DNA of 64,000 bases from assembly GCF_019649055.1 (NCBI RefSeq), contig NW_026570232.1:930001-994000 (forward strand), read 5' to 3'. This stretch comes from Paramacrobiotus metropolitanus. Its lineage: Eukaryota; Tardigrada; Eutardigrada; Parachela; Macrobiotidae. The position numbers and the translations under genes were made by a program. Positions 2,998 through 60,835 of the stretch are shown piece after piece (the first letter of the stretch is position 1; the number at the start of each line of letters is the position of its first letter). The notes below the pieces were generated by a model. The model was not told the origin of the DNA and did no database searches. It saw nothing but the letters and a program-made list of their open reading frames with translations.

Positions 2998-5302
2998 TTA
3001 ATCGGAAACAACTTCTGATTTGTTTTTTGTTGAACAATCTGCATCCTCGCTAGTCTCGTCCAGCTGAAACCCCGCATTTACCGCACCGTCTTCCCTGATC
3101 GAATCTCCAAGGGGTGCAGTATCTGGTTGGACATGCAGTACAGACTCATAAAGAGGAGCAGACGCTATCGTATTATTCTCTCCCGTTTCTTCGTCACCAC
3201 CGCTGTCGAACCCAGAAAGAATTACAATGCTCTCATTCTGCATGGCTTCCGCGTACGTCGGTGGCGCGCCATACAGAGGGGGCGGATCTTCCGTCACAGC
3301 CATTCCCCCATTGGTCCAACCGGTCTGACTGTGCTCACTGATCGCCGGCGCTGTCATCGCCGTACGACTCTGCTCCAATCGGACACGGTATGTCACGATG
3401 GCAAATATCACGACGACGATGAACAGCACGCCTGCAGTCACGCCCAAAACAATGGAGACACTGGAATCGGTGTTAGATGGATTGGAAGGCGGTCGTGGTG
3501 GCCATATAGAGGGTGGTGTCGTGCGAGTGGGTTTCACTGTTTCTCTGGTCGGGACAGGCGGTGATGTGGGCGACAAGGGGCAGCATGGATCCGGACGGAG
3601 TGTGACGTTTTGACACCGGAAATCGTACGGGCCGCTGGGATCCGGTTCACTACTGTTTGCGTGCCAGAGCTTCGGACAACTGATGATGGTGCGGTCTTGC
3701 AGGGATTCACCGTGAAGAAATGCGCCAAGCATGGGGCAGTGGCAGGTATAGCCTGAACAATCATAAAGGAATATTAATTTTGTAGCATTCTGGATAAATG
3801 ACAATTAGTATTAACTGTTAAGTAATATTGTATCTTTTGAGATGTTCCGAGAATTTCAAAAGAATTGTTTTGAATTGCTAAATAATTCCACGGATGTTTT
3901 ATGGTACCGGGGAGTTTGTTCTTGGAGGCCAAGGAATAGTCAATCACAAAAGCATTTCTCGTTGTATTTAGTCCATGGTCACAGAAAAATGACGGCGTGG
4001 TGTGATGCAGCGATATTTCAAAAGGCAGTTCCGTTACAACTATTTGACCGAATGAATCTGTCCAGTCTTCGAGGAGAATGGAAGTTGTTTTCGCTGTGAA
4101 ATACTTGGTTTTCGGAACCTGTTTCTTGCGTGAACCGGAAGTCACGGTAAGTGTGTCATTGCCCGCCAAGTTCAGTTCTCTGCAAAATATACAACAAAAC
4201 ATGGAACTTACATACTTAACTAAATAACAAGAAATCCGTATGCACTATGCACTTTTACACCTAACTTACAGTACACTATCCAGATTCACTGGGTGGGTAT
4301 TGGACATGGGGAAAGTACGTGACGGTATTACTGCCTTATAATCATGCGGCTAGTTTCGGCCTGTAAAACTGCCCAGTCGTTTAGCTTTACGATTATTTTG
4401 CAGGTAATTTTTATGTATGTGTTCGGAGTGTGTACAAAAACATGAAATCAGTTTACACATTTAACTGTGCAAGAAATTACCAAAGTTTTTTCTAACAAAC
4501 CTGAGAAATATAAACTAGGCAACAGTATTCATGCCATTCATTCGAGTTCTACTAATACTCACCGAATATTTAGGTAGACTTCCAGCCCGAGCAGTGAACT
4601 CGATAGCAAGCAGTTTGGGGAAAGATCCACGCTGATTTTCAGCAATGTTGGAGGTCTATCGCATTCTTGTGTCGATAACCTCAGTTTGCCGATATGGCCT
4701 CCTTTTGACTGCGGACAGAGATCCAGTTTGCCGGTTTCGTTAACCTTTATAATTTCATCGAGGTCGTGTGCCGCGGATAGTGATTCATAATCTGTAACGG
4801 TAACATTAAAGAATATAACAGCGCCCGCATTAATCGCAATATTTGGTAGTAGCTTTTATTGCTCAGCAATTTATCAATTTTTAAAACTGCAGTGCATTAT
4901 GGGCCCATGGCTATAAGGCCCATGGCTATAAGCGCAGACAAAAATTACAAGTTTGTGAGCGATTTTCAAATTACTGTATATGAGTTTAACGAGATTGTGG
5001 TCCGGAAGATTCTGGATGAAGCTCAATAACGACGCTACAGATGACGTAGTATAGTGTACATTATACTATCTGACATCGCATTTTGGTCTTTGATAGGAGA
5101 GCAATAAGCAATTATTAGTTTTGCAACCTGTTGGTACAAAGTCGTTGGACTCCTCAAGCTCGTCGACGAATTCAAATACTGTATTAATATCACCTCCGGA
5201 GCCATCATCCCATATTTGTGATTGAAGTGATTTGGTCAAAACAACATTATTCCCTGGTAATATTCCAAATGTACAAAAGTAAATCCAGAAAAATGAAACC
5301 AT
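2998..5302 (-). CDS. Family member B: single-pass membrane protein with PPxY cytoplasmic tail
   Basis: Proposed exons on the minus strand: 5302-5128, 4791-4563, 4179-3803 and 3752-2998. All join in phase and give about 511 residues. Exon 1 begins MVSFFWIYFCTFGILP, a signal-peptide-like start. Exons 2 and 3 form an ectodomain with N-glycosylation sequons. Exon 4 starts with a Cys-rich segment (YTCHCP...SCP...CC), then a Pro/Thr stalk, one hydrophobic helix (VSIVLGVTAGVLFIVVVIFA) and a tail of about 140 residues with overlapping PPLY and PPTY motifs. PPxY is the ligand of NEDD4-family WW domains, so ubiquitin-dependent trafficking is an inference. The donor at 3802 is weak (T|GTCATT) but is the only GT that keeps frame, and it gives a 50 bp intron. 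I recognise no named family. Intron phases match members C, D and E. Confidence 0.75.
4903..4932. repeat. 15-bp perfect tandem duplication
   Basis: The 15-mer at 4903-4917 is repeated exactly at 4918-4932, inside the first intron of member B. Confidence 0.95.
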
Positions 5303-6227
5303 TTCTGCATGAAAAACTGCATCAAATGCGAAAACGTTAACTACAGAATCAGAACTTAATGAAAGAAATACACAACACATAGCGCTTCGGAAAAGTTCGG
5401 CAAATTGTAAATCGATAACATATTTTACTTGTTTATCGCCGATAAGTATCGTAAACACTTGCAACGCAATTTACGCACTAGCAGATGTGTACTGTACGCA
5501 ACCGCTGGCGGAACAACTGGATAAAGAGTGTACGGCAGTTGATCTCATTGTCGACACGGAATGCATATGTGCATTCGATTGGCAATATCTTATCGTTCTT
5601 GTTTGTCTACCTTGCAAATCTCACTTGTTGCTGTGTACAGGTGAACACTGTGGTGGAACTGTATGAAAGGAGCAAATGTTGCGAATAAGCAGAAAGCGGA
5701 AGTGCCAAGGGTTAATGGTTTGATTTCCATTTAACGAATCATTTTCCATACAAATACAACGCTGCCAGAGTAAATGCACTCTTGTGCACCTTGTGCACTA
5801 CATCTTGTCGATACGAAGATGTTTGTACAGTAAATGTCCCATCGGGAAATCAGAATTAACAATTGCAGACTTGCAGTGTCCTCTAATAACACCTTAAATG
5901 CTAGTCAAACCCTGATTATGTGTAGCAGTTTACTATAGTAGGCAAAATAAAATAAATGTACGGCGATTCTGCTTCTTTTTCGGCGAACACTTTCGTCCGG
6001 TAATTAATGATATGGATAATGTGCACGGTTACACTAGCATTGTCTTGCGGAAACTGTTCGGAATCCTGCCATATTCGGATATAGCGTGTTATGTGAACGC
6101 ATATTCCTTACGATTAGTGTTGTCTGAGATTAATGCTGGCGAAACCGGCTAGTACTATTAAACTACGTAAAAAAACTCGCATACGGCTGTTGTACCAAGT
6201 GTTACCGGCAAAACCATGACCGTAAAG
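5303..6227. other. Intergenic stretch between member B and the chemoreceptor-like gene
   Basis: It should contain the 5' UTR and promoter of member B. The short open frames here show no signal sequence, domain or splice context. No RNA gene or repeat was seen. Confidence 0.5.
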
Positions 6228-7484
6228 TTAAAACACTGGATCCACAACAATAACGACATCCTTGGGAATTTTTGTTGACAATGCATTCTTTCTCTCTTTC
6301 TGCAGCTTTTCACGAGCGATATCAATGGCTGTCCGGTATTCCGCCCACGCCCACAGATACGGCATCCCCAGCCACCTGGTCAAGCGGATTCGCGTCTCTG
6401 TATCCAGTTTCGCCTCGAATTCCAGATCCACGCTCATATCAAAGTTTGCTGGTGGCGTAGTGGTACGCCTTTCGTCTTTTAAAGCTTGTATCATGGTTGT
6501 ATAGTCGTAATTCGCACACTCCGAATGTGCTGAAGGAATATCTGTAGATTTGTCGCGTACATACCGGCAAAACCACGACTTCAAGACTGTCGTTTCTACT
6601 GTCCGGCAGGCACGTTGACAATAATTACACGCCAAAACTTGCGACAATTCCACAAGAACGATAAGAGGCAAAAACTGCAGGCAAGACATCAGAATAGTCG
6701 ATCCCGGTAACAACAAAAAGTAAGCAAACACCATCCAGAAAAGTACACCAAGCATCTGGAATAAAGGATTGTAGTGCTCACGAATCAGATCCCTTCCTAC
6801 ACACTGGTAAAACGTCACCGTCGATGCAGCTGATTTAGTTGCGCACGCGAGAGATTCTGTTAATTCGTTTTGGAATGTTTTTTGCAGGAGATAACCCTCT
6901 ACCGCAGTTATCAGCAAATTGCTCGTCGCAATCAGGAAAAGAAATCCGTGAGGCATAATTATGCCCGGCAGCTTCACACCCAGGCGCAAAAACCATCTGG
7001 CTGCTCCAGTCTTAAAACAACAAAATTAATGTAATTCACCAGGGTGGTGAAATTAACGATAAAAGAAACCATAATAATGGAACCGTATAGTTGGTTCAAA
7101 GAAAGATGTTCATACCGTGCGAAGTAAACTTAATGGTTGAATATTAAATTCCTGGCTTGGTAACAAGATGTACCACATCAGCAAGCATCTTACAAGGGCT
7201 AAAATAACATAAACAGATCTGAGGCAAGTGAATACAGCGAAACAGTTGCGCTCTTTCCAAAGAACAGACGGTTTTCTCTTGATATTCTGACAAATTTTGA
7301 ATAAATATATCTACTTTCCTTTGGTTTGCTTGCTACGGCGGGTTTCATCGTACCGTCCAAGCGTCTGTCCACACTCAACAGCAATTGGTTAAAATATTCT
7401 TCACGCTTTCGGAAGACGATCAAAGGAAACAAAATATACTTGAATAGATGCAGATCAGAAGTTCGATTTGATGTACTATTAGCT
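6228..7484 (-). CDS. Divergent multi-pass membrane protein, chemoreceptor-like, 5' incomplete
   Basis: Three minus-strand exons join in phase: 7484-7337, 7286-7116 and 7010-6228. The introns are 50 and 105 bp with GT-AG ends. The first contains a helix followed by FRKREEYFNQLLLSVDRRLD, a pattern like the second intracellular loop of insect gustatory receptors. The second adds another long hydrophobic stretch. The third has several hydrophobic segments (for example VFAYFLLLPG and FLPLIVLVELSQVLA), then a charged, probably cytoplasmic C-terminus ending VVIVVDPVF. The plus-strand gene at 17545 has a similar loop, so both may belong to one 7TM chemoreceptor-like group. The C-terminal tail is unlike typical gustatory receptors. 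The acceptor at 7485 implies at least one further 5' exon, which I could not locate. Confidence 0.55.
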
Positions 7485-8792
7485 CTGCAGAAGGGATGGT
7501 ACAAACAATCCCGTTAAAAGGCAACAGACATTTTTCATGAATCGAATTTATCCAATCGATACATGGGAATGAGGGACGAAGCGGAAAATGGACCGCATGG
7601 AAACTTCAAGCATGCTTTATGCAGTAACGCCACATGGTAGCATGCGGCCACAGTCCTTGCATTGTACATAGCGGCGCTTCATACTAGTTAGATACTTCTA
7701 TTGTTATGGTTGTGCGTGTTTCTGCGTTGCTTGCTTCCGCCGCTTTTGCTTTTGGTTCTGTAGAAGTATTAAATTTGTCGAGACTTTTATTATACCCCTA
7801 ATCGTTCATCGCACTGATATCCAGTTTACCAGTTTCTCCATTACATTCGGATAGATTCTATACTAAGAAAGAATTACCATAATGTAGAAGAGAAATAGAA
7901 AAAATCATTGATCACAGAATATTTTCATACAATGGTATGAGAAATCTCCGCTTAACCAATAATGATATTATTGGCCATTGGGTCGTTTAATCGGGTACTT
8001 ATTCTTAGTATGCCTCTGTGACCTTTGCGGAACCTTTCGCACAGAGACGAAGCGCAAGAAGACTCATCATACGTAAGCTTATCTAAACGGCCATGACGGT
8101 GCCCACTGTCATGGCCGCGCTTAAGTGAAGCCAGGTCTCGAAAATTCTGTTACAGGTTAAAAGTGCTTACTTTAGTGAACTGTAACGTCCGTCATTCAGA
8201 TGAAATTACAGATGCAAATTACAAGGCTTTCATAACATGAATTTTGATAACCGTAGTTTTGTAGTCAGTTCTTATGCAACCAAAAGTTTATGGATATTGT
8301 AGCAGTAGTCTATCTGGCTGCTGTTCTAGTGGGTTGGCGTGTTGGCCGTACCACGATGTCTGTTGGGATGAGAGGTGGCACGGTAGGCAACGATGCTGAC
8401 CGAGGACGCTCTTACTGATGTAACACAATTACTGAGCGTATCAACGTAAGGTCACGGCATGTTTAATGACAAGAACAATGCAAGACGCTGATGCAATGAT
8501 GCAAGCTGTAGCAAGCCGAGTACAAGACTGAATTCTAGAAATTCATGAAAAGGAGAACTAGCCGGTAAAATGAGAAGAATTCATAACGTGATGAAATGAT
8601 GGATCATAACTGGGTGGTTTTGTGGGTTGTACAACTTCTACCGCTACAATATGTACGTATCGGAGTGTCTCGAACTAATGCGAAACCATAATTCATTAGC
8701 CGGATAAATTTACGCTCGTATAGTATATTGTCCAATCAGACAAAATAAGTTATCGGTTTGAAAAAGCTTTCAATCCTTATATCATTTCAGTA
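7485..8792. other. Stretch without a recognised gene
   Basis: It should hold the missing 5' exon(s) of the gene at 6228-7484 and the 3' UTR of member C. No coding exon, RNA gene or repeat could be supported. Confidence 0.45.
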
Positions 8793-10437
8793 TCAATGGC
8801 GACGGTACCACATCATGCACAAAACCACAAGCGGCCCAACCACAAAGACCAAAATTGCCCCAATTAGTATCCCAATGATCGAGGCCGTCCCCAATTTCCA
8901 GCTGGGAGTTGTCGGAGTATGTGCAGGCTGAAGCTGTATGTCACCTAAATGAAATTGAAAACACAACTGGTCAGTAATCTTTTTGTTATGGTACGCACTA
9001 CGAGGCAGTCGGCATATTAGATTAAGCGTTTTTCCATAATGGTGGCAAAAAAAATAAAGAAATATATGTTAATTCGAAATTAAAAGCACGTCATCGTACT
9101 TACCGCATATTACTGAATTGCGATCCGAACCGCATGATCCGTACCAATATTCGTCTTTTGTAAATGTGTCGGCGGCATTAGGAAAAACTGAGCAGTTCCT
9201 GGGGCACATCAAGGCTCCAAATCTCGTATCCAGACAATACGCTTTTTTTGGCAGTGTCCCGCGTAGTGTACGGCAATATGTCAGACTGCTGGTTTCAGCT
9301 TCCGCTGAAAAAGAAACATAAATGAGTAAATTAAGGTTACCAAAGTGTGTGGTACGGATTCTCGGGCAAACTGGAAATGGTTGGGGCATTTCATTATATA
9401 GAGTAGCTGCTTATTAGAAATTATGCGGCTGTTACTTGGAATATATCAGCTCACACATAAAAGCACTCGAGTAGGATAAATTACGAGCATTTGCTCATTT
9501 CGGTAACTCTGCTCGATATTAACAGTATTAAAGGCTTACACGAAATCAAGGCAAAATCGATGACCACCGATTCGTTAACGGAATCAAACACTTGTTTATG
9601 CAGTTCCAATTTAATCTCCAGTTCATCCAAGTTCGGATACAAATGAGTTGCAAATCTGGCATCCGACCGTGGGAAAAACGTGTGGTTTTTATGAACAAAT
9701 TCCGGAACTGCCGACAAGTTTAGCGGTATTATAGTGCCCTCATTGTTATTAGCCAGTTCTGCGACGAAAACGGGGTGAGTCTTATTGACCGAGAGTTCCA
9801 TAAATAATGCCCTGCAATAGCAATGGCAAGAAACTGATTTAATAAAACAATTTTGTCAGCATAAACTGGATGACAACGCAGCTCAGTAACTGTAATAAGG
9901 TCACAATTCAACAACAAAAAAATACATAAAATATCGTAACTTGAAATAAATGAAAGATAAGTAAATTTCCGCTCCTCTTCCTACAACCTGCTCGGGCAGG
10001 GTAGTGATGTTAAAGCACGTAAAATACCTAAGTACATACGTAATCCGTATCCCTTGAATACATCATTATCATGTTTATTTCAGGCAAAAAAATCATAACG
10101 CTTTATCCGCAAAATGCGTGAAAATTTAGGGGAGTTAAGCGCATTGTAATATCCGAATTTTAATTCTATTTTTCTTTCATTGTGGGGGAATACCTGAAAT
10201 TCAAATAGTATCCAAATTGTACATTTTTGTACAATGAGACGGTTTCGTTGTCGTAGCATTCTGTGTCGGTTCGCTCGGCAAGTTTGAGCACAACGGTGAT
10301 TGTGGCGTTGTTCTGGTTAACACTAAGGACTGTGTTCTCTCTTGTGGTAAATATTGTTCCCGCTCGGGAGGCAAGGTTTTTTGGACAGATCGAAATGGTA
10401 AGTTTACGATCAGTGCTTTGTGCGTCGCTCAGGTAAA
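8793..10437 (-). CDS. Family member C: single-pass membrane protein with a very short tail, 5' incomplete
   Basis: Minus-strand exons 10437-10194, 9811-9540, 9304-9104 and 8944-8793 join in phase and encode 288 residues up to TGA at 8795-8793. The first two are ectodomain exons with Asn-x-Thr sequons, at the same places and phases as in B, D and E. The third holds the juxtamembrane Cys motif (TYCRTLRGTLPKKAYC...MCPRNC). The last encodes a Pro/Thr stalk, one hydrophobic helix (IIGILIGAILVFVVGPLVV) and only about eight cytoplasmic residues (MMWYRRH). Unlike B and E it therefore lacks PPxY. A first exon ending in phase 1 with a signal peptide is expected between 10438 and about 12000 but was not identified. 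Function unknown. Confidence 0.7.
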
Positions 10438-12144
10438 CTGCAAGAACATTCAATTTACAGTACACTTAGTCAAAGCGAATCATAGATTTTAGTTACTTAC
10501 TGTAAGCTGTGAGTAACTACTATTTATGTGTAACTACTATTTTGACTATTTTCCATGTTTACCAAAGTCGACGCTTTTCTATAAAATTGTACTGGTGAGC
10601 TTATTGAACGGATAGAATAATAAGCACATTTGCAATTATTACGGATCCTTACATGTGTTCCAGTCTTGTGCCAAGGCAAAACCAAAAATTGATATTGATA
10701 TCGTACTGAAGAAAAACATATAGTCCGATTTCATTTTTGACGTGCAAGTAAATATCAAAGATTAATATGCGGAATAGCATGCAAAAAACTAATTACTGCA
10801 GTTTTTGCACAGGTTTTTTAGATGACAGCAGATGCTTACAAGTTTCCACCTCTGAAACAGACGCACATTGAGAGTGCCCTTTATCGGAAACTGTAGCATG
10901 CCTGTTTATAGTTATCGTAAGAACCTCCTGCCATTTGCACAATCTCTTTCGCTACCGTATGTGGCACGCAGCACCGTTTTCAAGCAGAATCTCTCATAAA
11001 ATATCAGTTGCTTTTATGGCAGGTGTTTATTGTCAGCTAAATGCAATACGATAACTGATAAGATAGCACTATAGTGTTACAAAATGAAATCGCGTACCAA
11101 GACTGCACAACAGCTTGTTATCGTTTTATAAATTTAAATACCATGCGTCCGTGTACTGTAATAACGACACATACCGATATCCATCTATGTTCCATACAAC
11201 GCGTTTTAAGTCTTTCAAATGCGAATGGCTTTCTTTTAATCGTTCCATGCGGAAGCTACGCTTGAAATAATTGTGCGCCAGTTCACGCATTTTAATTACA
11301 GTGGTGGCTGAAAGCTCAAAACATTAATTTATTGTAACTTCATTGCACGAGCGCGTTACCGCTTTACACCATTGTGAATTTATGTATTCTTTTCCCTGAT
11401 CACAAGTAATACTGTAGGTAGTAAGATGCGCACTTAAACTGACTACGCTGATGACTGAATGTGTATTTCCGAGAACGTCAATCCAATATCCATACAACTT
11501 AGATGACTGACCGTGGGACAACGATAAATTATTGTTCCAGAACGTAAAGCAGAAATCGTTTTCTAGACAGACATACTAGAGATTGCCGAATTGTGGAGAG
11601 GCAGGGTTCACTACAAGTGCATTAGTTTCAGTGCTCTAAAGTCTGAACGTGTGAGAAACCAGGGTAAAACGGCTAGCGCGCGTTTAATTAACCAGTCCAT
11701 TATTTTAGGCATTTATATTATAGTGCTGTACTTGAGAGTTGCGACTCATCAGAGTGCCCTCTTACGGTGGATATGGCTCATTTTGGAGTTATCTACAAGC
11801 AGCGACGAAGAAAACCCGCAACTCAAAACTCTGACCTGTTGTTGATTCATCTGCAATCGTAATGCGTGATTTCAAACACAAAAGCCGGTTGCCTGATAAG
11901 ATAAACTGAAGTATCTGTACACTTACGATGTCAAACGTTTTGTTGTGCGATTTGATCATAGGAACGTAATCAAAAATTACTGAATCAAAGACGATCGACA
12001 AGTCGCTAAGCTTATAAGAACCATAGAAGCCTCGCTGGGTGGCCGACGGTCAGTTAGTAATATTAAAGTTGTTTGTGAACCCAGCTGACGACTACAGTTC
12101 GTTGAATTCGTTTCTCTGAGCGCCGCGCGCAAATTACAACGGCA
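10438..12144. promoter_or_regulatory. Head-to-head intergenic region between members C and D
   Basis: C is read on the minus strand and D on the plus strand, so this region should carry the 5' exon of C and divergent promoters. No convincing exon, TATA box or repeat was found. The open frames here lack splice-site support. Confidence 0.4.
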
Positions 12145-14220
12145 ATGAAACACCTCTCTTTCGGCAGAATGTTTCGATATTTCTGCATACTTATTTTGCA
12201 ATGGCATATTTACGGCGCACAGGATGCTAATTCTACCAGTCCTGTGGCCAACAACACTTCAACCGCTTTGCTGTCCAATACATCGACAGCTGCCATTTCT
12301 ATTCCAACAACTGCCATACCACCGGTGCCCATTCCACTTCTTATTAGTAAGTACGCCTGTTCGATAACCAAATTGATATGCCAAGTTTTAGCAAAATATT
12401 TGTACCAAATGTGATGATTTTCGGTTAGAAGAAAGTAGTATTACAAAGTTGGCATTAGCACAAACGTTTTTGCTTAGCACGGACTTCAGTCAACAAATTT
12501 CCATTTTCCTAACTGTTTTTTCAGAGAGAGAACTACCATTCATTCGATTCGTAGTTCTTATGGCCACAACTGGGATTTGTTAATTTAAATGTATTGCATG
12601 TATTTATGAACCCTACAGTGCAATTACGAGATGCTAACAAAAGTCACAGCAAAGCTGCAAAGCAAAGCTGAAAAACAACATTGTGCACTAATCATTCCCA
12701 ATCAGCCAACTTAAAAGCTAACAACGCGTCCTCATTGTCCCTCATATCATTAAATGTTCCGAGAACAGACACTACATTTCCGCGTTGTTGTCTCAGTACT
12801 GGTATTTTAAATTTTACGTATAACTGTTTAGGTCTTCCAAATGTTACCAATGGATTCCTGAGTATTCCTTGTGGAAAAGCAGTTGGTACTATCGCCGAGG
12901 GCCGAGCAGGGCGTATCCGTTTCACGCGTCGCGATTTGTTAGACAATCCTACCTTCTACGTCAGGCATCTGGCATGGGCCTCATCAGAGTGCTCTGTAGC
13001 GCAGCTGAAACCTCAAATTAATTTAGAGGCAGCTGTAAATTATGTGGAGGTTTTGCTTATTACGGCCAGGTTTGTCTCATGATACCATACTCATTCGTGT
13101 TTCACAGCAGTATGTTAATTTCATAATACACCTTATTGTCCGCATTAAATTTTAGAACCGTTAATGCGACAACACCCAGTGACGAGACCATTACAATGAT
13201 AAACAGTTGCCCTACCTGTCCCGCATTTAATGGTTCCACTGCGTCGTTTTATCCAGCGGGAGAACCGGTACCATTGACCCGCGATCCCATATCCTGGACG
13301 TCGTCCAATGGCGACGACGAAGAAGACATAACTTTCATTCAAAGAGTCGTACGATTTCAATACACTTCGAACACCAACATGACCGACGAAGCTTTAGACG
13401 AAGTGGTTTTCCAGCTGGATTATGTTGCAGCTATCCGTAAGTTTTCATGCGGTGACCTTTATCTCAAACGTTTCCGTACGCTGTTGTATTACAAAATTCT
13501 TAAGAGCTCGGAGCTGCACCCTTTATTTGACAAAATATGATTCTTTTAGGATCTTGGATGAGTACTGACGATGTAATGATGCTTTACGCCATCTACGAAT
13601 CGCGAGATGCGGCTTACGGTTACTGCGACACGACAAAGCAGTTCCTTCATTATAAATATTGCACTGCCATTCCACTGCGTCCACCTAGTGACACGACAGT
13701 CACGTGTCCGTCTACGCCTCTTTCAATGAATATGTCGTCCCCGACGCTAAATGCCACCAATAAGCGATGCTTAAGAGCAGGCGAAGCATTGTTGCAAATG
13801 GGGATTAACCCCAGCAGGCAGCCTCCTGCGACGACGCCACGGATAACCACCCCAAAGTCACTGCCACCCGTAACCATTTATAATGGCGGGAACGGCGTGA
13901 CCCCTGACACCTACTGGAACACAACGAGAATTTTGGCGGTAGTGATGGCCGTCATTGGGATAATTTGTGCGACCTGTACGCTGATTGGTCTGACTATACG
14001 GTGCGTGGAGAAGCGCAATGCACGGAAGGCGGTCCTGCGCAATGCGGCCATTGCCGAGCAAGAAGAGATCAACGGTACTCCGTATATTCCCGCTCAACCG
14101 CGATTGTTCGGAGCCATGCCATCGTCGGACAGTGTGCCGATGACGGCAGACACCAGCTATCAAAACTCGCCGTGTTTAGATGGACGGAAGAACTCCGATC
14201 AGTATTCACGATTTACGTAG
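12145..14220 (+). CDS. Family member D: single-pass membrane protein with Thr/Ser-rich N-terminus
   Basis: Exons 12145-12346, 12832-13069, 13156-13436 and 13550-14220 join in phase (exon-end phases 1, 2, 1) and give 463 residues. Exon 1 starts MKHLSFGRMFRYFCILILQW, a signal peptide, then an Asn/Thr/Ser-rich stretch with many N-glycosylation sequons. Exons 2 and 3 form the ectodomain (LSIPCGKAVGTIAEGRAGRI; an acidic DDEED patch). Exon 4 holds the juxtamembrane Cys motif (YGYCDTTKQFLHYKYC...TCP), a Pro-rich stalk, one hydrophobic helix (ILAVVMAVIGIICATCTLIG) and a cytoplasmic tail of about 75 residues without a PPxY motif. Member E follows 0.6 kb downstream on the same strand. The exon 2 domain could be a divergent CUB-like beta sandwich, but that is a guess. 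Confidence 0.8.
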
Positions 14221-14829
14221 TGAAAATGGATTGAATGTTTTGTTTGAGCTAACGTACCTGCAAATGATTTACAAGTTGGATTAATCATTATTGCTTCGTT
14301 TGGATGGATATCGAATTTTAATCTAATACGTGATAGTATAATAGATATTAATACAATTTTTAAAAAAATTCATTGAAAATTATAGTGGGTGGCTAACTTT
14401 TTATGTATAGAGTGAATCACGGGACAAACATGATTAAAGCCACGAGTCACCTATAACCTTGAAGCCACGAGTCACCTTGAACTGTACACAATGTTATCAA
14501 ATATTTTAGATGATAAAATATTTGTCAGTTGTCGGAACAATACATAGCCGATATCCGTGAGAACTGTGAGATTATTTCAAAATGGATTAATTACTAAATC
14601 GTTCAACTGGCCCCGAATGATACTGCTCGTACGTACGTAAATTTCTTGATAAATTTTACAAATGGGTCATACCCCGGAACAAGCGACGTATGCTCCGAAC
14701 ATACCATATTCCGATTAATCGTACCGCATGTTTTCCTCATTATTTGTGTTACATCTACACCATCGATAACGGGACCTTTACCAACGGCCCCCGAGTGCGC
14801 CAACGGAATAATTGGGAATTGGGTTCACC
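14221..14829. other. Spacer between members D and E
   Basis: It contains the 3' UTR of D and the promoter or 5' UTR of E. A short phrase (aagccacgagtcacct) occurs twice, near 14440 and 14461. Nothing else could be supported. Confidence 0.5.
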
Positions 14830-17009
14830 ATGCATACCGTCACCCAAATTTATTCCTTCTGCGTTATTCTTACTGCAACAACCCCTATATACGCTACAAC
14901 CACTACCGCGCCAGCTGTGCTGTTACAGACATCTGTTCCTTTAAACGGAAGCACAAACGGGAACACTGAAAATGCAACCAATACAGGCAATACTTGGGAA
15001 CTTGCATCCACAATGGCTATTGCCAACACGACGCCAAACGTATCAGTAGCCAGTACTGCTTCAACAGCAAGAGCGACATCAACACCAAACAGCATTTCAC
15101 TGCCCTACGATGTTTTGAAAAGTACGATATTTGAGTCGGTATTTGGTTCTTTATTGCAAAAATCAATCATCAAGTGAGTTTTCTTGAAACTGATATAGGT
15201 AACTGAACAGCAAAATTACATTTTATTTAAATGAGCTGTCCGCGCTCTAAAAATTAATGTAATACTTCATATATAATAAGTATTAATGATTAAAAATTAA
15301 ACGGTATGAACATTACCTGTCACAAATCCGATTGGTTTATTACGAACTGTCAAACCACAAACTTGAAGTTACACAACTTTTGGGACACTGCACGTTACTG
15401 ATACTGATTTCCAATTTCTACGTTTTCCAGTTCTTCCAAACCCAGACTCAAACGTGACAACTTTACCATGTTGGCATAAATCGGCATCACGATCTGGACG
15501 TATTACTTTGAAAAGAAAGGATTTCTTGCGGAGTTCTTCCAATAGATTGTTATTTCGAGTTCCGTCCTGCCAGGGCGAAAGCTATTTCGCTGGCGCAACA
15601 GATGTTTCTGACTTCTCCGAAGACCTGTACATCGACATCAGGCGAGCATTGACATATACTATTACCATTAATTTTATAATCACAAAGTACTTCGTAATAT
15701 TGATTTTACGAGTAGTTTCAACGTGCCGTATTCCATTTTTAGATTGGGTGAACTGGATCCGTTGTTGGTTGCTTATCGTCAGGAATACATAGACGTGCTG
15801 TACAAACGAAAAATAAATTTCTCCTATGATTCGGAATTTGATTTGCCTGTTAATTACATGATTCAATCATCTAATCGACACGATCACGTTGTGTTAACGG
15901 GTGGGAAAACGGGCATCTGGTCGACTGGACCGCAGTTTGAAGTTTCGCTTTACCGGTTTCCGTTGTACTTTTTCAATGCCTCCAATAACTTCACTCTACT
16001 GGATGTCTTTCATAACACATCGGTATCTGGAATGAATATCACAAAGAATACTACATTTGCAGACCTGAACGATCCATGTTTAATGGAAAAGGAGCTGATG
16101 ACCATCGACTATACTGTCGTACTAAGTATGTGTAACGCTGTGACCTTTTGACTAGTTAGTGCACCTGCATTAAATATTTACGGCTAATATTCATTTTGTA
16201 CAACCATTGCGAGTACATTCACCATATTAGGATACTCGTACGGAATGACCTGATCCCGGATTTACTATAACTATTTAATAGGGCCCCGTGGACCGAGAAA
16301 TATCTTCAATGCTGCACAATACTTCCTACGAAATCGCGTAAATGACATGCATTACTGTGCCTCCTATAAGGGGTTTGTTCCGAAGCAAATGTGTTCCAAC
16401 ATAATGGGAAATTCTCTCAACATAACGGCCTGTCCGCGGGATATTTCCGTTTCCGCACCCAGCCTCCCGCCAAATATACAGTCCGAAACTGCTTCTTGTT
16501 TGGATCTCATAGACACAATTGCTCAGATAAGCCCTGTGGTAGTTTCACGAACGACATCGTCACCCTGGATTATGACAACCTGGAGATATAACAATAACGA
16601 CGATTACTACGACTACCGTATGATCGGGGTCGGTGTGGCACTAGCGCTGACCTTTCTGAGTTTAAGCTGTGCCGTACTGAAATACTGCTGTAAGCATTAT
16701 GCTGCACGTCGTCATATGGAAGCGGCGGTGAACCATGCCCATACTCGCGACTTCAGTCGGCGCAATTCCGATGAGGGACCACGCGTGTACGGTGTCGCCA
16801 CCAGCGGGGTGCATACGACACGCGGATTGGATGCGCCGCCGTCGTACGAGGAAGTGATTCGTTCTGGGTTTTCGTCACCCATTACCAGCAGTAAAGGATC
16901 GTCGAATGATTTGTGCCAACACGAAGAAACTTCAGCGCAGCCTACTATACTAGTTGTGGGTGTCCCTTCTCGAACGGTTATGATTGATAATTGTGATGGG
17001 CATTCGTAA
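14830..17009 (+). CDS. Family member E: single-pass membrane protein with PPSY tail motif
   Basis: Exons 14830-15121, 15431-15641, 15743-16125 and 16282-17009 join in phase and give 537 residues. The start MHTVTQIYSFCVILTATTPIYA is signal-peptide-like and leads into a mucin-like Thr/Asn/Ser region. The ectodomain exons carry many sequons. The exon 2 to exon 3 junction needs a GC-AG intron (AG|GCGAGC) to keep the phase used by B, C and D. Exon 4 has the YCASYKGFVPKQMC...ACP juxtamembrane motif, one helix (MIGVGVALALTFLSLSCAVL) and a tail of about 110 residues containing DAPPSYEEVI, a typical NEDD4-type WW-domain ligand. I infer a membrane receptor or adaptor regulated by ubiquitin. Family not recognised. 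Confidence 0.8.
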
Positions 17010-17544
17010 AGTACATATGTCGTTATTTCACTAAATGCAGGAATTCACGGCACTGTATACAATGTGGATACGTCAGATGAAGTATTTATGTATAATCGAG
17101 CTGTCAAAGTGACAAACAGTTATTAAATACAGATGTATTGGATTTCGTACATGCCAATGCATGTAGCAGTAGGAGAACTTCCAGGAAAGATAGCACATCG
17201 TTCACTTACCGGAAGTACCCTGACCCAGCAAAGCGGAAATTGTGGCAACTAGCTAAATTGTTATTGCGAATCATGTTTATGTTGTTCCCGATGCGATGAT
17301 AAAATTTATTTGCCGTTAGGTTCCATGATTTTTTGATTGCCATGATTTTTTTGTTGATTGAGGGACGTTCGTAATCAAGAAAGACTGCAGGTGCATACTG
17401 TGCATTGCACAAGAGCCTGTTGGTTAATAAATATTGGGGCGATATAAATACTAGGCCTTTATCATTGCCATTTTTGGACAGTAAATTTGTATAAGCCGTT
17501 TTTATAATAACCTCAACCTACCGTATGAGTGTAGCGAAATTAAT
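17010..17544. other. Spacer between member E and the chemoreceptor-like gene
   Basis: Presumed 3' UTR of E followed by the upstream region of the next gene. No exon or repeat recognised. Confidence 0.5.
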
Positions 17545-18693
17545 ATGCCAGTCACCGCTTCAGTTGACCGAAACTTGACCGTGTCGAAACTTGTCGATTA
17601 CGGAGAAGAGCCAGAAGATCCAACCTATATTTCATTTGGCCCGCACGAGACGGTTTTGTCCACTTTTGGTTTTACTTTAACACGGTCTTTGAGAAAGAAT
17701 AATAATTCCTGCCAATGGACTGTCGGAATTTTTAAAACAACCCTTGCCGGCTGCATATTACTGGGGTCTTTCTTTTCATGCATTTTATGGGGTATACTGA
17801 CTTTTGTTCGACTGTTTACTGATCGAGATGCAAACAGCGTTAAACTGAGCTTGCTCGCTGAGGCGCTTGTGGATATTCCTTATGAACTATACAATATTCG
17901 TGCGTTTCTCGTTCTCATCATATTTTTTTGCCGTCAGAAATCGCTGAAAATCATTTATCGGTTCTCGGTTCAGATCATCACTGATACTTTTACGCATACA
18001 AATGCGCAAGAAAAAGTTTTAAACAGTGTGAAGAGGATCGCCTCTTGCTTGACCATATTAACCTTTGCGTTAACATGTGTCTGGGAATGGCTTGACTGGA
18101 CATCGTACTTTTTCCAAAACCCAGAAAAAGCGGATGCGAGCTATACTAAAGCATTATATCCGTTAGCGATCCCGTTTACAACTCTGCAAAATATTTTAAC
18201 GTGGACATTTTTCACTTCTTTACCGTTCTGCTTGTCGCAGATGGTTTTTGTGACCCTCATCACATTTGCCATAATTTTGCGGTATTGCACTGAGGAACTC
18301 AACAAAAACATTTTGTTAACAGTAGAGCGATACCAAAGGAATGGAAAGCAGCTTCATGATACTGCCGCTTGTAAAACTTTGGCGAATTCCGTTAGTAATT
18401 TACGCCGATCATATTTGAATCTCACCAGATTTTGTGCAGAAGTAAACAGTGTTTACAACTGCATACTTTTTGTCATTTTTGTACTGGATACAGCAGCAGC
18501 CTGTGGATGTATTGCGGGTATTACGACCAGTACTGATAGGTTTTCGGTGGTTACCTTGCCGAATTTTGGAGGTGTAGCAATTTTTAGCTTTTATGCTTTG
18601 GGACTCACATTTCCAATGGTGCAGCTTTATGAAAGGGTACATAAACGTTACGTGTATATATTATTCCTGTCGTTAAAAGCAATGTATAAATAA
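17545..18693 (+). CDS. Gustatory-receptor-like seven-transmembrane protein
   Basis: A single uninterrupted reading frame of 382 residues, from ATG to TAA. The hydropathy read by eye gives about seven hydrophobic segments. Among them are TTLAGCILLGSFFSCILWGI, YNIRAFLVLIIFFC, ILTFALTCVWEWLDW, MVFVTLITFAIILRY, YNCILFVIFVLDTAAACGCI and GGVAIFSFYALGLTFPM. The long loop after the fifth segment (LRRSYLNLTRFCAEVNSVYN) resembles the region before TM6 in insect gustatory and odorant receptors. The N-terminus has no signal peptide, as expected for that inverted-topology superfamily. The TYxxxxxQF signature of insect gustatory receptors is absent, so the assignment rests on topology and loop pattern. The frame ends shortly after the last helix. 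A GT after QLYE (AAGG|GTACAT) could instead splice to a further exon that I did not find. Confidence 0.65.
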   Translation: MPVTASVDRNLTVSKLVDYGEEPEDPTYISFGPHETVLSTFGFTLTRSLRKNNNSCQWTVGIFKTTLAGCILLGSFFSCILWGILTFVRLFTDRDANSVKLSLLAEALVDIPYELYNIRAFLVLIIFFCRQKSLKIIYRFSVQIITDTFTHTNAQEKVLNSVKRIASCLTILTFALTCVWEWLDWTSYFFQNPEKADASYTKALYPLAIPFTTLQNILTWTFFTSLPFCLSQMVFVTLITFAIILRYCTEELNKNILLTVERYQRNGKQLHDTAACKTLANSVSNLRRSYLNLTRFCAEVNSVYNCILFVIFVLDTAAACGCIAGITTSTDRFSVVTLPNFGGVAIFSFYALGLTFPMVQLYERVHKRYVYILFLSLKAMYK

Positions 18694-45752: not shown

Positions 45753-48700
45753 ATGGAGGGGTATTACGATCGCGATGCACCTCACGAACGTCATTCAGGT
45801 GCTCTGCGAACGGGGGTGCGAGTGCACCGTAAACACGGTACGAACACGCTCTTTTTTGTTTTGCATTGTTTCTACTAGATGTATTCTGGAATAAAATCCT
45901 GAGTTATTTACAATGCGATAGGCGCTGCTCCGTACGCCCGCGTGGTACACACGGACAGAGAAGGAGATGCGCAGATGGGCGAAGGATCCGCCAGCAGCGC
46001 TACCAGTCAAAGGTACGTCCGCATTAAGCCAGTTTGTGGTAGCATCTGCGACTGCAGATGAAAAACGATATTTCCATCCTGTTGCAGAGTGGCCGCGTTT
46101 CATCCCCGTGGTGGCCAACAGGCGCATCGGAGCCGCAGTCTCTCGGTCGCGCTTCCCGCTGAAAGGAGTAAGTAGAGCTTTCCACAGCTCTGCTTGATGG
46201 TCTTCTCACACTTTGTATTGTTGCACTTGACAGACGTCTTTTCCCGGTTGGGTCCGAGAAATCTCCGAATATCTCGCGAATCCTTCGGCACGCGCAATCG
46301 CGGGCGCGCCCGAGTGGTGTTTACATCGCGACCGCCGCTGACGGCTTGGTTTAAAGTTCGGGTATGCCGAAAATCGTAATCTTTTCGATTTGCTGGTATT
46401 TCTGTGGTTTTGCGTTTTTATAATATACGTCTTAGCATAAGCTGTTTTCGCAGCTGGTTGGTGCGGCCACCGTGGACAGAACATGGGTCATGAATGCCAT
46501 TGGAGAACGACTTTCCGCGGAAAACATTACGTTCCAGCCGATTCAAGTGCGTGAACAAAGCAGATCTGTTTTTTACTGGACGATTTCTATTAAATGGAAC
46601 GTTTGCATTTAGGTTGCCGTCGATGGAAATTCCTTAACATTCTATGTCAAGGACCAAGCTGCTGCAAATAGACTGAGGATGCTGAATAAAGCGATTCAGT
46701 TCTCTCATGGGCCAAAGGTACCGTTCAGTGCGTTATTGGTTTTGGCTTTTCATTCCGATATTTAATAGTATCATGTCTTTATGCAGCTAAAATTAACATT
46801 GTCTGTTTATACAATTAAATTCTTTTATGAAACTAATGTGATTCTTGGTCGTCTGGGACAGATGCCTATTGCCGTAAATCCTTCTCAAGCTCCCGTTGTA
46901 CATTTGGATGAATCCGTAAAGGCCGCGATAAAGACCGCTATGGGCAAACGTTATGACGCAGCAACCCACTCTCTGACTTTGAGCTTGTTTAACGAAGCTC
47001 CTGGTGAGTGAGGGAACCGTTTTTGTTGGCTGCACAACTGCTAAATTCGGCATTTACTAAATTGTATAATGCCTTAATGGCCGAGCCGACCTATTGGTGA
47101 AATCGGTAATTCAGTTTTATTTATAGCATTGTGGTTGTGGAGTAGCAGTTGATATTTAAATAGATAAAATTCATAATTAATCATTATTCTGTTACTTTAG
47201 AATTTAAAACTGCCAGCCTGAATATTCAGCTGTCCAGAGCCAGTCATATGAAAGCGGTTTTGGAACTGATTGAAGCCAATATCAAAGAGCTGCAGTCTCT
47301 GGACCTCAGTAAAAATCGTCTATCGCAGTTGATGGACTTTTCTCGTTTGGCTGACAAAGTGCAATTGCGCCAGCTAAACCTCAGCGATAATGCGATTCGG
47401 CATATACGCGATGTGGAGTTGTTACGCTCTTTTATCCACCTTGTGGATCTGGATTTAAGTCGGAATCCCATTCGGGATGCGTACCGTGATACGCCTGCAT
47501 ACATTGAGGATATACGGAAGAAGCTACCGAATCTGCTGCGGTTAGACGGTGTAGATCTGCCCAAAAAGATAGGATTTGATGCACCGGCGCGTATCCAACT
47601 CCCAGTACCCACTCCGTTCTATACGCCATTTGATGCACAGGCCAACCAGCGACTTGAATCTTTCTTGCTACGGTACTATGAGTATTTCGATGGCAGACGG
47701 TCAGAATTGTTGGGTGCTTATTCGGAAGATGCGCAGTTCTCCCTCTTCATCCCGAAATTATATGACAAGTACGTTCAGTAAAATAAGTACTGCTACTGAT
47801 ATTAATTTTCATATGCTTGATTCTGTAACAGATTGTACGTTATGTAGGAGCTCGGGTTTCTATTCCCACAGCCGAAATCTGAACAATGTCACCGAAAGTG
47901 TCGTTCAAAACGCGAAATTGTTGCTTGGAAGGACGTCCATTGTTGATTTCTTTGGTAAATTACCTGCCACTGCTCATGCCCCGAAATCGTTTACAGTGGA
48001 TGTGTTTTTCAACGAGGTTTGTTGAATCTCTTTAATTAGTTGGTCATATTCGGGCTGACTAGTAAATGCATTGGAATTCTGTCATTATTAATTAGGGAAA
48101 GCTAGTGCACAGGCCGATTCGCTTGCACAGGTTTACAGTAACTGAAAATGATTAAATGCCAAACATTGAAAATTGAAATTTTAAACATTTAAATTAGTAC
48201 CAGGCCAATCCCTTTGCAATCCATTAAAACACGCATTTGACTTTAAATTGGTTGATACTTGAACTCTCAAAAATGTCGGAAGGTGGTTTGCTGAGAGGTT
48301 CTGTTAAACTACGCGGTGTACACCAATGGCCCAACTGCCCCAAGACTGTACTTTGTTAAGAAGCATCATTATGGAAGAATTTGTTGTCACTGCAGAATGC
48401 CTTGTTGGGACTCATGGTAACAGGTGTTTTTCGAGAAGGTGAGATTCTCACTCGAATTGATATCTACAGTGCGCTCAAAGTTTGTGTTTATCCTTTTAGA
48501 TCAACACAAGCGCCAGCAATTCCGTTCATTTTCACGAAATTTCGTCATTGTGATATCAGAGGAAGGGTGAGTCCACAAAGAAATACCGAATGTTTTGGCC
48601 AGAATTAATTTCTGTCAATAATTCATTACCTTTTCATCAGGTGGCGGATAATATCCGATACCTTGACCGTCACCGCGCCTTCCGTGGAGCAAGTCAATCA

Positions 48701-49026
48701 GTTCAGGCAGAACACGGCGCCGGAGAATCCTTCCAACAGTGTTGCTACACCTGCACCTACTGTATCCACTGCCAGCGCTCTTGATGAACCGATGAAATTG
48801 GCCATGATAGTTAATTTTGCCAATGAGAGTGGAATGAATGAGCAGTATAGTCGATTGTAAGTTTTCCGGCAGTCTAAGTCCTGAAAATGATGGAACTGTG
48901 GAATACTGCGTGTTTTGTTGTTGTAGAGCGCTGGAGGACAACTACTGGGATTATGCGAAAGCTGGTGCTGCTTTTTTGCAACTGAAAAGTGAAAATAAAC
49001 TTCCCCCGGAAGCCTTCGTAAAATAG
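45753..49026 (+). CDS. NXF1: Nuclear RNA export factor 1 (NXF1/TAP)
   Basis: Thirteen exons join in phase: 45753-45837, 45922-46012, 46088-46167, 46234-46361, 46454-46546, 46613-46717, 46862-47003, 47201-47768, 47848-48016, 48396-48438, 48500-48566, 48641-48856 and 48927-49026. They give 628 residues, near the human length (619). Order of domains: basic Arg/His-rich N-terminus, RNP-type RNA-binding domain (AWFKVR...FYVKDQAAANRL), leucine-rich repeats (LQSLDLSKNRLSQL, LRQLNLSDNAIRHI, LVDLDLSRNPI), NTF2-like domain (RLESFLLRYYEYFDGRR ... RSFSRNFVIVISEEGWRI) and a C-terminal UBA-like TAP-C domain ending LKSENKLPPEAFVK. With NXT1/p15 it carries mRNPs through nuclear pores. A decayed copy of the 3' end lies at 60199-60770. 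Confidence 0.95.
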
Positions 49027-49822
49027 CAGCACTGTGTTTCAGTTTTGTTATGGTTCTGTTTGGAGACTACACAAGCTGTTGCTTCGGCTTAGCCTTTCTT
49101 CGATGTTGATGATAGCCTGAATTTTATTTCGTTGAACTGTCAGTTACTGAGTGACAGTGGTTTTGTTGTGACGGACCTCGGGGAAAAATACGTTAAAATA
49201 CACAGTAGTGTCAGTACGAGACACGATAGTAAACAGCTGTAAGTATGTACAAGTACTTCAGCTTCTGGAAACAAATCTAGAAAAAGCGTTTGTGCACTAA
49301 CTTTAATGTAGTAATCGCTGAACCATTGCAGACATCGGAATAAAAAAATCCCCAACGACTTGAAAATATTGCAGAACCGGTCAAATCTTGACGTTCACTT
49401 CACAAGTACTATACTTTGACGCAACGCACTGGGAGTAAAATCATCCAATAAAATGTAGAAATGTAAACGACTTCAGTGCTTTTGATTTGGGACTTTGGAA
49501 TGGGCTCGTCGAGCATAAACACAGGATAGTAGAAGGTTTTCGATAGCCCACAACAAGAAAGACGCTGAATATACGTAGTAACAGTGATTTTATTTATTCT
49601 TTGACGAACAAACCTAAGTTACCTAACAGTAATAATTTATAAAACGACATCGCTATCCATTCCTCTCATATGAAAAGCCAGTTATAAAAAAAATTTGAAT
49701 TAATTTCTTGATGGTGCATTAACTTCATTTCATAGTAACGCACACTTTCAAACTGGTCAGTGAAAATAATAAGCTCATTTCCGTACTAACAGTAAAAAGA
49801 GATCAAAAACCAACTCAAAACA
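49027..49822. other. Convergent spacer between NXF1 (+) and CSN4 (-)
   Basis: Contains both 3' UTRs. AATAAA-type signals occur near 49342 and 49447 for the plus strand, and reverse-complement TTTATT near 49590 for the minus strand. No exon recognised. Confidence 0.5.
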
Positions 49823-55656: not shown

Positions 55657-57125
55657 TTATCGAATTGACGTGATTGCATATGCAAACAGCAAAAGCATCA
55701 ATGTCGGAAACGGATGCTGAGTACAACACATTCTGCGCGCAGAATTTTGAAGGCTACGCCGTACATCCGATAAAACAGCGTTGGCAGCGTCAGCACCGGC
55801 GGCGGCGGCTCGCATACCGGCCTGTCCGAAATTGGATTCCAGCAGCATAGTGTTCTGGGGCGCATTGCAGTTGTCGGTGAGGCAGATGCATAGTTGACCT
55901 TTGAGGGTCAGATTGTACTGCTGCCAGTCGGGCAGGACGACGCTTACCGGGCCACTCGGTTCAGCAATGGGATTGTCGCTGAATTCGTAGCATTTCTCAC
56001 TGGTACCGAATTCCGGGTCCAGTTGGGAGAACACCGAATTGAGGGCAGTGGATGCGGTCAGACAGCCGGTATTACGCGCTGTGAAGTCGTTATTTATTTA
56101 TCACTATTACTTATTACTTACTTCTGATGAAAATTTAAGATTAATATTAGAACAGAATTTGCTTGAATGCTAAACTTTGAGCTGTTGCGTTAATTTCGCA
56201 TTTTTGTTTGTCTGACAAAATATTTCGGACTTCGGAGTACAATATGTATGCACAGCAAATTTGTTAACAACATATTGACCGTGAAATGCTTTTAACCTGA
56301 CAAGTGAAAGTAACTGTGAGACGACCTTACAACAAACATACTGTGGTTTTGTTAAAAAAACGAATGCCGACCTTTTGGTTGCAAGTGCATAATTACCATA
56401 CTGCGAAATCGTATTCGCTACTTATACGTACTCGTATACACTGTACTTGTTCATAGTACCCAGTCAGCTTTGTAACAGATTTCTAGCTTACGTTTACGAA
56501 AGTTCGTGTATGAAATGAACGTTCTAATATTCTATTTTTCTAGCAGTGACTGTTTCTGTTTCTAACAAGTAAGTAAAATAAATTCTCCTACTGGCAAATG
56601 ATCTAACAGCCGTTGAATTGGCTTTCGGGACGGCTGTCCAAAGTAAATCCGTCGAAATGCAGGATACACCGTCTTGTGAACATTCTCCCAGAAGGAAGGT
56701 TGTGGGGTCTGTACAGTATTCTGCTACATCCAGCGTTAAATTAGGTGACCTTGGACAATAAGCGCACTGTAATGCTCTCCCTGTAAACGTCGACAAAATA
56801 TTAAAATAATTAGTCGAATATCTCCCGAATGTAACAACAATAGATAGTATCTGTATAGTTTTTACAGTAAGTGTACATACATACTCGTTTGTGCACTGTC
56901 GGCGGTGCGATTACCACAATAGGCATTAATTGATTAATAGCTATTAGCGAAGCACAGCACAATATTGTTTTGCGACTTATGAACACAGACCTTATTGCTT
57001 AGCTTGTAAACAGAGCTCGAGAGATAGAAAGTGATTTGTGCGATAATAAAATTGATTTTATACATACCAACATCCACAATCCAAGCAGCAAGAAAGCAGA
57101 TTAACGAAGATTTATAATTGAACAT
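55657..57125 (-). CDS. Ly6/three-finger-like GPI-anchored surface protein
   Basis: Minus-strand exons 57125-57068, 56780-56592 and 56078-55657 join in phase and give 222 residues. Exon 1 is a signal peptide (MFNYKSSLICFLAAWIVDVG). The mature protein starts LQCAYCP, the Cys-x-x-Cys opening of Ly6/uPAR domains. It has about ten Cys and ends the domain with CICLTDNCN, the usual C-x-C...D-N-C-N close. After an Ala-rich linker the C-terminus is hydrophobic (FPTLMLLLFAYAITSI) with no cytoplasmic tail, fitting a GPI signal. Exon 2 ends at A|GTAGGAG, chosen because it keeps phase into RNTGCLTAS. The gene is convergent with WDR20. Confidence 0.75.
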
Positions 57126-58762: not shown

Positions 58763-58792
58763 TATAATTTGGGAATAGTTGTCGTTGGGCAC

Positions 58793-60770: not shown

Positions 60771-60835
60771 TCATACTTTATAGTACTGTAAGCGTGCAAT
60801 GTTCCGCTGTGAATTAACGATGTTTTCGTAGAAGA

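What the first reader, a model, noticed from the sequence alone, without database searches (positions are those of the whole stretch)
2998..17009. Cluster of a highly diverged, unrecognised membrane protein family with conserved exon phases
B, C, D and E share the same order: two ectodomain exons, then a Cys-rich juxtamembrane segment and one TM helix. Junctions fall in the same phases (1, 2, 1), and where the first exon is resolved (B, D, E) it encodes a signal peptide. They retain little sequence identity outside a YC...C...CP motif. Conserved structure with fast-changing, heavily glycosylated ectodomains is what lineage-specific receptors under diversifying selection look like. That role is inference.
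Basis: partly seen in the sequence, partly recalled or inferred. Interest (0 to 1): 0.8.

Follow-up and report, generated by a model that had tools for sequence, protein, structure and literature searches.

The report
Diverged tardigrade CUB-type membrane protein family
Four neighbouring genes in what is very probably a water bear genome code for one-pass membrane proteins that look like strongly altered members of a large, unlabelled family of surface proteins built around a CUB-type binding domain; what they bind is unknown.

Summary
B, C, D and E share one layout: signal exon, two ectodomain exons, Cys-rich segment, one TM helix, tail; modelled intron phases are 1,2,1 in all four. I also found C's signal exon. 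They are not an isolated cluster: B led to a large family in the same genome, at least 64 exon-2 and 65 exon-4 sites on 18 contigs, with the same phases and the YC..C..CP motif. No scanned member passes a Pfam cut-off. An AlphaFold2 model of one relative (pLDDT 83) matches CUB domains (Z 11.8, rmsd 2.3 A). Profiles built without window genes fit all four genes better than shuffles (combined p 6e-5 to 1e-6); by hhalign only B is clear, E fails. The folds of B-E themselves were not computed. Diversifying selection is not supported: 0 of 38 close paralogue pairs have dN/dS above 1. Likely role, inferred: ligand-binding surface receptors, with PPxY tails in B, E and at least seven relatives recruiting NEDD4-type ubiquitin ligases. 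By assembly numbers the genome is Paramacrobiotus metropolitanus.

The parts
5194..5302 (-). B exon 1: signal peptide, ends in phase 1 (donor not unique)
   Evidence: hydrophobic N-terminus; donor GTGATA
4563..4791 (-). B exon 2: first half of CUB-type ectodomain, phase 1 to 2
   Evidence: family exon-2 HMM 19.1 bits, E 1.6e-4, best of 2119 window ORFs; whole ectodomain, hhalign probability 93.7
3908..4179 (-). B exon 3: second half of ectodomain, phase 2 to 1
   Evidence: exon alone weak (p 0.057)
2998..3752 (-). B exon 4: Cys-rich segment, TM helix, tail with PPPLY and PPTY
   Evidence: p 0.0165 for the Cys-rich part; own-genome search finds similar tails on C91 and C79
10653..10734 (-). C exon 1: signal peptide, phase-1 donor GTAAGG (newly found)
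10194..10437 (-). C exon 2: first half of CUB-type ectodomain
   Evidence: p 0.002
9540..9811 (-). C exon 3: second half of ectodomain
   Evidence: p 0.002
9104..9304 (-). C exon 4: Cys-rich segment YC..YC..CP
   Evidence: p 0.0015
8793..8944 (-). C exon 5: TM helix and very short tail, no PPxY
12145..12346 (+). D exon 1: signal peptide and Ser/Thr-rich stalk, phase 1
12832..13069 (+). D exon 2: first half of CUB-type ectodomain
   Evidence: p 0.0005
13156..13436 (+). D exon 3: second half of ectodomain
   Evidence: p 0.0085
13550..14220 (+). D exon 4: Cys-rich segment, TM helix, tail without PPxY
   Evidence: p 0.0225
14830..15121 (+). E exon 1: signal peptide and Ser/Thr-rich stalk (donor not unique)
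15431..15686 (+). E exon 2: first half of CUB-type ectodomain
   Evidence: BLASTP D-E 5e-5, match includes the stalk; p 0.0015
15743..16125 (+). E exon 3: second half of ectodomain, longer than in the others
   Evidence: p 0.0065
16282..17009 (+). E exon 4: Cys-rich segment, TM helix, tail with PPSYEEV
   Evidence: p 0.0065

Best explanation
B-E are strongly diverged members of a large family, in this probable tardigrade genome, of type I membrane proteins: signal peptide, one CUB-type beta-sandwich split over two exons, a short four-Cys segment (YC..C..CP..C), one TM helix, and a tail that in part of the members carries PPxY. Shown: gene structure, family size, shared splice positions, and the CUB fold of one modelled relative. 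Inferred from homology: that the ectodomains of B-E have the same fold. Inferred mechanism: the CUB domain binds a ligand outside the cell; in B, E and at least seven relatives the PPxY motif recruits WW domains of NEDD4-type HECT ubiquitin ligases, which set the endocytosis and turnover of the receptor or its cargo. C, with almost no tail, and D, without PPxY, would be non-signalling binders or co-receptors. I put the identity at about 0.85 and the PPxY/ligase mechanism at about 0.4.
For: Own-genome search with a B relative gives 152 exon matches at E up to 10; of the 150 rows I took from its list, 144 have E up to 0.01. Union with a second query, E up to 0.01: at least 64 exon-2 and 65 exon-4 sites on 18 contigs. 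Exon profiles trained without window genes: the exon-2 HMM ranks the four exon-2s first of 17 window-gene exons, the exon-4 HMM the four exon-4s. Combined p by 2000 shuffles per exon: B 5.7e-5, C 1.2e-6, D 1.4e-5, E 9.8e-6; with the first, narrower profile and 1000 shuffles B 2.7e-4, C 3.5e-6, D 1.2e-4, E 1.9e-3. hhalign family against B: probability 93.7, E 1.9e-7, 0 of 60 shuffles as good. Same splice phases at equivalent places. Fold of relative L033: AF2 pLDDT 83.1, pTM 0.80; Foldseek best hit is a spermadhesin CUB, E 7.8e-5; VIA Z 11.8, rmsd 2.3 over 110 of 112 residues. hhalign family against 15 canonical CUBs of this genome: score 26.6, best of 60 column shuffles 20.7. Tails: PPSY in the TM frame in 6 of 18 exon-4 sites examined, 13 of which had a TM candidate; a tail match adds L032. 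HECT exons are present in the genome (35 matches). Precedent: mammalian LRP10 combines CUB, TM and PPxY (PMC11315911, passages read).
Against: No scanned member has a Pfam match over cut-off; best CUB E is 0.094. The hhalign probability of family against canonical CUBs is only 29% (16% the other way round) in spite of E 6e-4. The model is of a C91 relative, includes about 20 translated intron residues, and is not of B-E. hhalign with single sequences is at noise for C and D (1 of 60 shuffles as good each) and fails for E (40 of 60). B exon 3 alone is not significant (p 0.057), and in a scan of all window ORFs an unrelated ORF tops the exon-4 list (E 0.014) and unrelated ORFs top or interleave the exon-3 and exon-2 lists. 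From the first to the broader profile single exon scores moved both ways (C exon 2 from 10.3 to 8.6 bits), and part of the fall in p is the larger number of shuffles. The Cys pattern differs from canonical CUB: the conserved Cys lie in the first half. Three sampled canonical CUB introns of this genome are phase 0 at other places. The Cys-rich exon did not fold (pLDDT 60). PPxY is absent in C and D. Foldseek hits after rank 1 include many non-CUB beta proteins. WW domains were not searched, and HECT matches are not shown to be NEDD4-type.
Confidence: 0.7

Rival explanations
1. Immune or self/non-self recognition receptors: the family is a clustered, expanded repertoire whose CUB domains bind microbial or foreign ligands, as C. 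elegans CUB-like proteins respond to infection.
For: Large arrays on C91 and C79, high divergence, sequon excess in B-E. CUB-like genes appear in C. elegans infection-response tables (PMC2895663, passages read).
Against: No dN/dS above 1 in 38 close pairs. Nematode CUB_2 (PF02408) has no match over its cut-off in this genome. No expression data.
Confidence: 0.3
2. Developmental or housekeeping co-receptors of the LRP10/Neto kind that control trafficking of other membrane proteins through PPxY and ubiquitin ligases.
For: CUB plus TM plus PPxY occurs in LRP10, and PPxY motifs bind NEDD4-like ligases; for LRP10 itself the paper leaves this open (PMC11315911, passages read). Purifying average selection. 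Neto2 is among the fold matches (Z 7.8).
Against: Such co-receptors are few per genome (recalled); here there are at least 64 sites. No LDLa match in the members scanned.
Confidence: 0.3
3. Reproductive surface proteins (gamete or seminal recognition), given that the closest solved fold is a spermadhesin.
For: Best structural match is spermadhesin 1spp_B. P. metropolitanus has many male-biased genes in scaffold regions (PMC11191345, section 16 read).
Against: The fold match reflects a single CUB domain, not function. Whether genes on C91, C79 or C12 are male-biased could not be looked up.
Confidence: 0.15
4. Four unrelated membrane genes whose common phases and motif are chance.
For: Very low identity; E fails in single-sequence hhalign and C and D are at its edge; some junctions were chosen to fit.
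Against: Exon-specific profile matches for all four genes and the same splice phases in a family examined separately.
Confidence: 0.05

Closest known systems
CUB domain (Pfam PF00431; spermadhesins, C1r/C1s, neuropilin, cubilin)
   Same: Beta-sandwich fold of the modelled relative; best VIA match 1spp_B, Z 11.8; the 50 rows shown are CUB-containing proteins by title or by recalled knowledge of the protein. One relative matches the Pfam CUB model, E 0.094, second half aligned to second half.
   Different: Below the Pfam cut-off; conserved Cys in the first half and none conserved in exon 3; intron phase and place differ from three sampled canonical CUB introns of this genome.
LRP10 (mammalian CUB and LDL-domain receptor with PPxY tail)
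   Same: Type I TM protein with CUB in the ectodomain and a PPxY motif in the tail (PMC11315911, passages read).
   Different: LRP10 has CUB domains interspersed with LDL ligand-binding domains; here one CUB and a four-Cys segment without an LDLa match.
Nematode CUB-like proteins (Pfam PF02408, CUB_2)
   Same: CUB-like proteins with signal peptide, several listed among C. elegans infection responses (PMC2895663, passages read).
   Different: No match over cut-off in this genome; a TM helix and PPxY tail are not mentioned in the passages read.
Neto1/Neto2
   Same: CUB domains and one TM helix; Neto2 among the fold matches (Z 7.8).
   Different: Two CUBs and an LDLa domain (recalled) against one CUB here.

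Membership tests
Large G000 family on C91, C79, C13 and other contigs | Exon order and phases 1,2,1 | tested here: met
   B-E; family
Large G000 family on C91, C79, C13 and other contigs | Exon-wise profile similarity above shuffles | tested here: met
   all four genes when exons are combined; strongest for B; B exon 3 alone misses (p 0.057); single-sequence hhalign fails for E
Large G000 family on C91, C79, C13 and other contigs | YC..C..CP segment before one TM helix | tested here: met
   exon-4 profile p 0.0015 to 0.0225; B has YTCHC at the start of the motif
Large G000 family on C91, C79, C13 and other contigs | PPxY in tail | tested here: inconclusive
   B and E yes, C and D no; relatives 6 of 18 sites examined by script plus L032, so not a strict feature
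CUB domain | CUB fold in the family | tested here: met
   for relative L033 only
CUB domain | CUB fold of B-E themselves | not testable with these tools
   folding accepts contiguous translations only; the introns between exons 2 and 3 are not multiples of three
CUB domain | Pfam PF00431 gathering score | tested here: not met
   hence called CUB-type fold, not a Pfam CUB member
CUB domain | Canonical Cys pairs spread over both halves | tested here: not met
   family alignments; the canonical pattern is recalled, and known CUBs vary in it
LRP10/LRP12-type receptors | LDLa domains | tested here: not met
   no PF00057 match in the members scanned
Nematode CUB-like PF02408 | Pfam CUB_2 score | tested here: not met
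   one match below cut-off elsewhere in the genome

The most novel reading that the evidence does not exclude
A tardigrade has built a repertoire of dozens of single-CUB surface receptors, many with PPxY tails and missed by Pfam, that serves as a main recognition system (immune or self/non-self), with ubiquitin-ligase-driven receptor turnover as output; B-E are among its most diverged members.
Probability: 0.25. Interest if true: 0.8.

Novelty: new variant of a known kind. Interest (0 to 1): 0.6.

Why it matters
A family with at least 64 sites in one genome, which Pfam would leave as unknown membrane proteins, turns out to have a CUB-type domain, a fold used mostly for binding (recalled). This gives a testable handle on surface recognition in a tardigrade. 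A full-text search of the held PMC library for papers with both 'tardigrade' and 'CUB domain' found none. It also shows how far a CUB-type domain can drift while gene structure stays fixed.

Tried and rejected
Pfam on exons and spliced proteins: no family over cut-off. Single-protein own-genome searches with D and E find only themselves at convincing scores; C likewise. The weak E hits on C247 (kinase-like ORFs) and C85, and the B hit on C17 (zinc-finger-like ORF), look unrelated by eye. F-tail hits on C44 look like four-TM proteins with a similar PPxY tail and were not counted as family members. PDB sequence searches gave nothing usable. LDLa identity of the Cys-rich exon: considered from its Cys/Asp pattern, not supported; its AF2 model is poor (pLDDT 60.1) and was not searched against structures. 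Alignment A2 placed exon-2 fragments wrongly and was dropped. The first dN/dS run had misregistered exon-4 codons and was replaced (redone). A tree of 46 family genes plus B-E left B-E unresolved, except that D and E are nearest to each other. A shared intron place with canonical CUBs was looked for by eye in three and not found. Paper searches. A PPSY tail first credited to L028 is identical to that of its neighbour L027 and was dropped from the count.
Full report
Where we are. The window is G000:C12:930001-994000 of a 169.8 Mb genome in 533 contigs. Size and the longest contig seen (C1, 4,484,719 bases) fit the published Paramacrobiotus sp. TYO assembly (170,483,395 bases in 684 scaffolds, longest 4,484,941; PMC8277472, passages read). 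A later paper treats the 170 Mbp genome as that of P. metropolitanus (PMC11191345, passages read), a tardigrade. The match is by numbers only and they are close, not identical.

The four genes. All have phases 1,2,1. Tails: B has PPPLY and PPTY, E has PPSYEEV, D has none, C has almost no tail. Identity is low (22-23% to B). BLASTP finds D-E at 5e-5, a match that includes the Ser/Thr-rich stalk, and C-E at 0.02-0.03. Pfam finds nothing over cut-off.

The hidden family. D, E and C find no convincing relatives on their own, but B finds tails on C91 and C79 (E 3e-4, 0.5 and 0.14). Reading those loci showed the same exons. A query from C79 gave 152 exon matches at E up to 10, list cut; 144 of the 150 rows I took have E up to 0.01. 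A second query from C13 added contigs. The union at E up to 0.01 is at least 64 exon-2 and 65 exon-4 sites on 18 contigs, 32 of each on C91. These counts are of sites and include fragments and decayed copies; grouping the 150 rows gives 72 gene-like groups, of which 25 have exons 2, 3 and 4 in order and 46 at least two.

Do B-E belong to it. Exon profiles were built only from relatives outside the window. With the first set the combined shuffle p was B 2.7e-4, C 3.5e-6, D 1.2e-4, E 1.9e-3 (1000 shuffles). With 17 further loci it became 5.7e-5, 1.2e-6, 1.4e-5 and 9.8e-6 (2000 shuffles); single exon scores moved both ways. The exon-2 profile puts the four exon-2s first among 17 exons and the exon-4 profile the four exon-4s; the exon-3 profile puts three exon-3s first and B's seventh. 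Against this: in a plain scan of 2119 window ORFs only B exon 2 among the genes' exons is significant (E about 2e-4), and an unrelated ORF tops the exon-4 list (E 0.014). Single-sequence hhalign supports B alone (E 1.9e-7); C and D are at the edge (1 of 60 shuffles as good) and E is not supported (40 of 60). The splice evidence does not depend on residue scores: family phases are 1 at the exon-2 acceptor (46 of 50), 2 at the exon-2 donor (51 of 54), 1 at the exon-4 acceptor (52 of 55) and 1 at the exon-3 donor (41 of 43), at the same places as in B-E (after NI/R and at the end of the last strand). Signal-like exons with a phase-1 donor were found upstream of exon 2 in 9 of 13 tested.

The fold. 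L033 on C91 has exons 2 and 3 in one frame, so it could be folded as a contiguous translation with 37 other rows. AF2 gave pLDDT 83.1 and pTM 0.80, nearly all beta, the intron part low. Foldseek's best hit is spermadhesin 1spp_B, E 7.8e-5, followed by mixed beta proteins, among them further CUB chains. In the VIA-align list the 50 rows shown are CUB-containing proteins by title or recalled knowledge: 1spp_B Z 11.8, rmsd 2.3, 110 aligned; then C1s, cubilin, neuropilin, Kremen, MASP, PCPE. hhalign of 29 relatives against 15 canonical CUBs from this genome scores 26.6, E 6e-4, with a probability of only 29%; the best of 60 column shuffles scores 20.7 and reversed CUB 16.9. So the relatives very probably carry a CUB-type fold below Pfam's sensitivity. 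The Cys-rich exon stays unassigned.

Selection. In 37 genes, 38 pairs with dS below 1 have median dN/dS 0.34, maximum 0.54, none above 1; per exon, exon 4 exceeds 1 in 2 of 36 pairs.

Mechanism. CUB domains are mostly binding modules (recalled). PPxY motifs bind WW domains of NEDD4-like HECT ligases, and LRP10 is a CUB protein with such a tail, although for LRP10 itself the paper leaves the ligase step open (PMC11315911, passages read). The genome has HECT exons (35 matches at E up to 1e-10); WW domains were not searched. At least seven relatives have PPSY tails (six by script; L032). Hence, as inference: ligand binding outside, ubiquitin-controlled endocytosis inside, for members with PPxY. 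Ligand, tissue and role (immune, reproductive, developmental) are open. A search of the held papers found none with both 'tardigrade' and 'CUB domain'.

Noticed in passing
window 58097-58801 (-): Gene F: TM exon with tail LDAPPNYNNVV and PPSYEDVV, resembling the tail of E (tblastn E 0.017); its ectodomain piece aligns weakly with E exon 3 (E 1.1). Possibly a further shortened family member.
   Followed up: partly
window 60792-60989 (-): Degenerate tandem copy of the F tail, 72% identical at DNA level, with the PPxY region broken.
   Followed up: partly
G000:C44 891567-921682 (L016-L018): Cluster of proteins that look four-TM by eye, whose tails (PPAYHEVVSRNEPDVPPSYAQV in one) resemble that of F despite a different topology.
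   Followed up: no
window 55657-56910 (-): Two ORFs with a Ly6/three-finger-like Cys pattern by eye.
   Followed up: no
window 17485-18693 (+): Intronless multi-TM ORF resembling gustatory receptors by eye; no Pfam hit.
   Followed up: no
window 60228-60718 and 48579-49049: Dispersed repeat, about 70% identical.
   Followed up: no
L021, L026, L019 exon-2 ends: Three of 38 exon-2 donors are GC instead of GT at the same phase-2 place.
   Followed up: no
L061, L071, L072 (C91): Family copies with exons split over frames or lost motif residues: probably decayed members inside the array.
   Followed up: no
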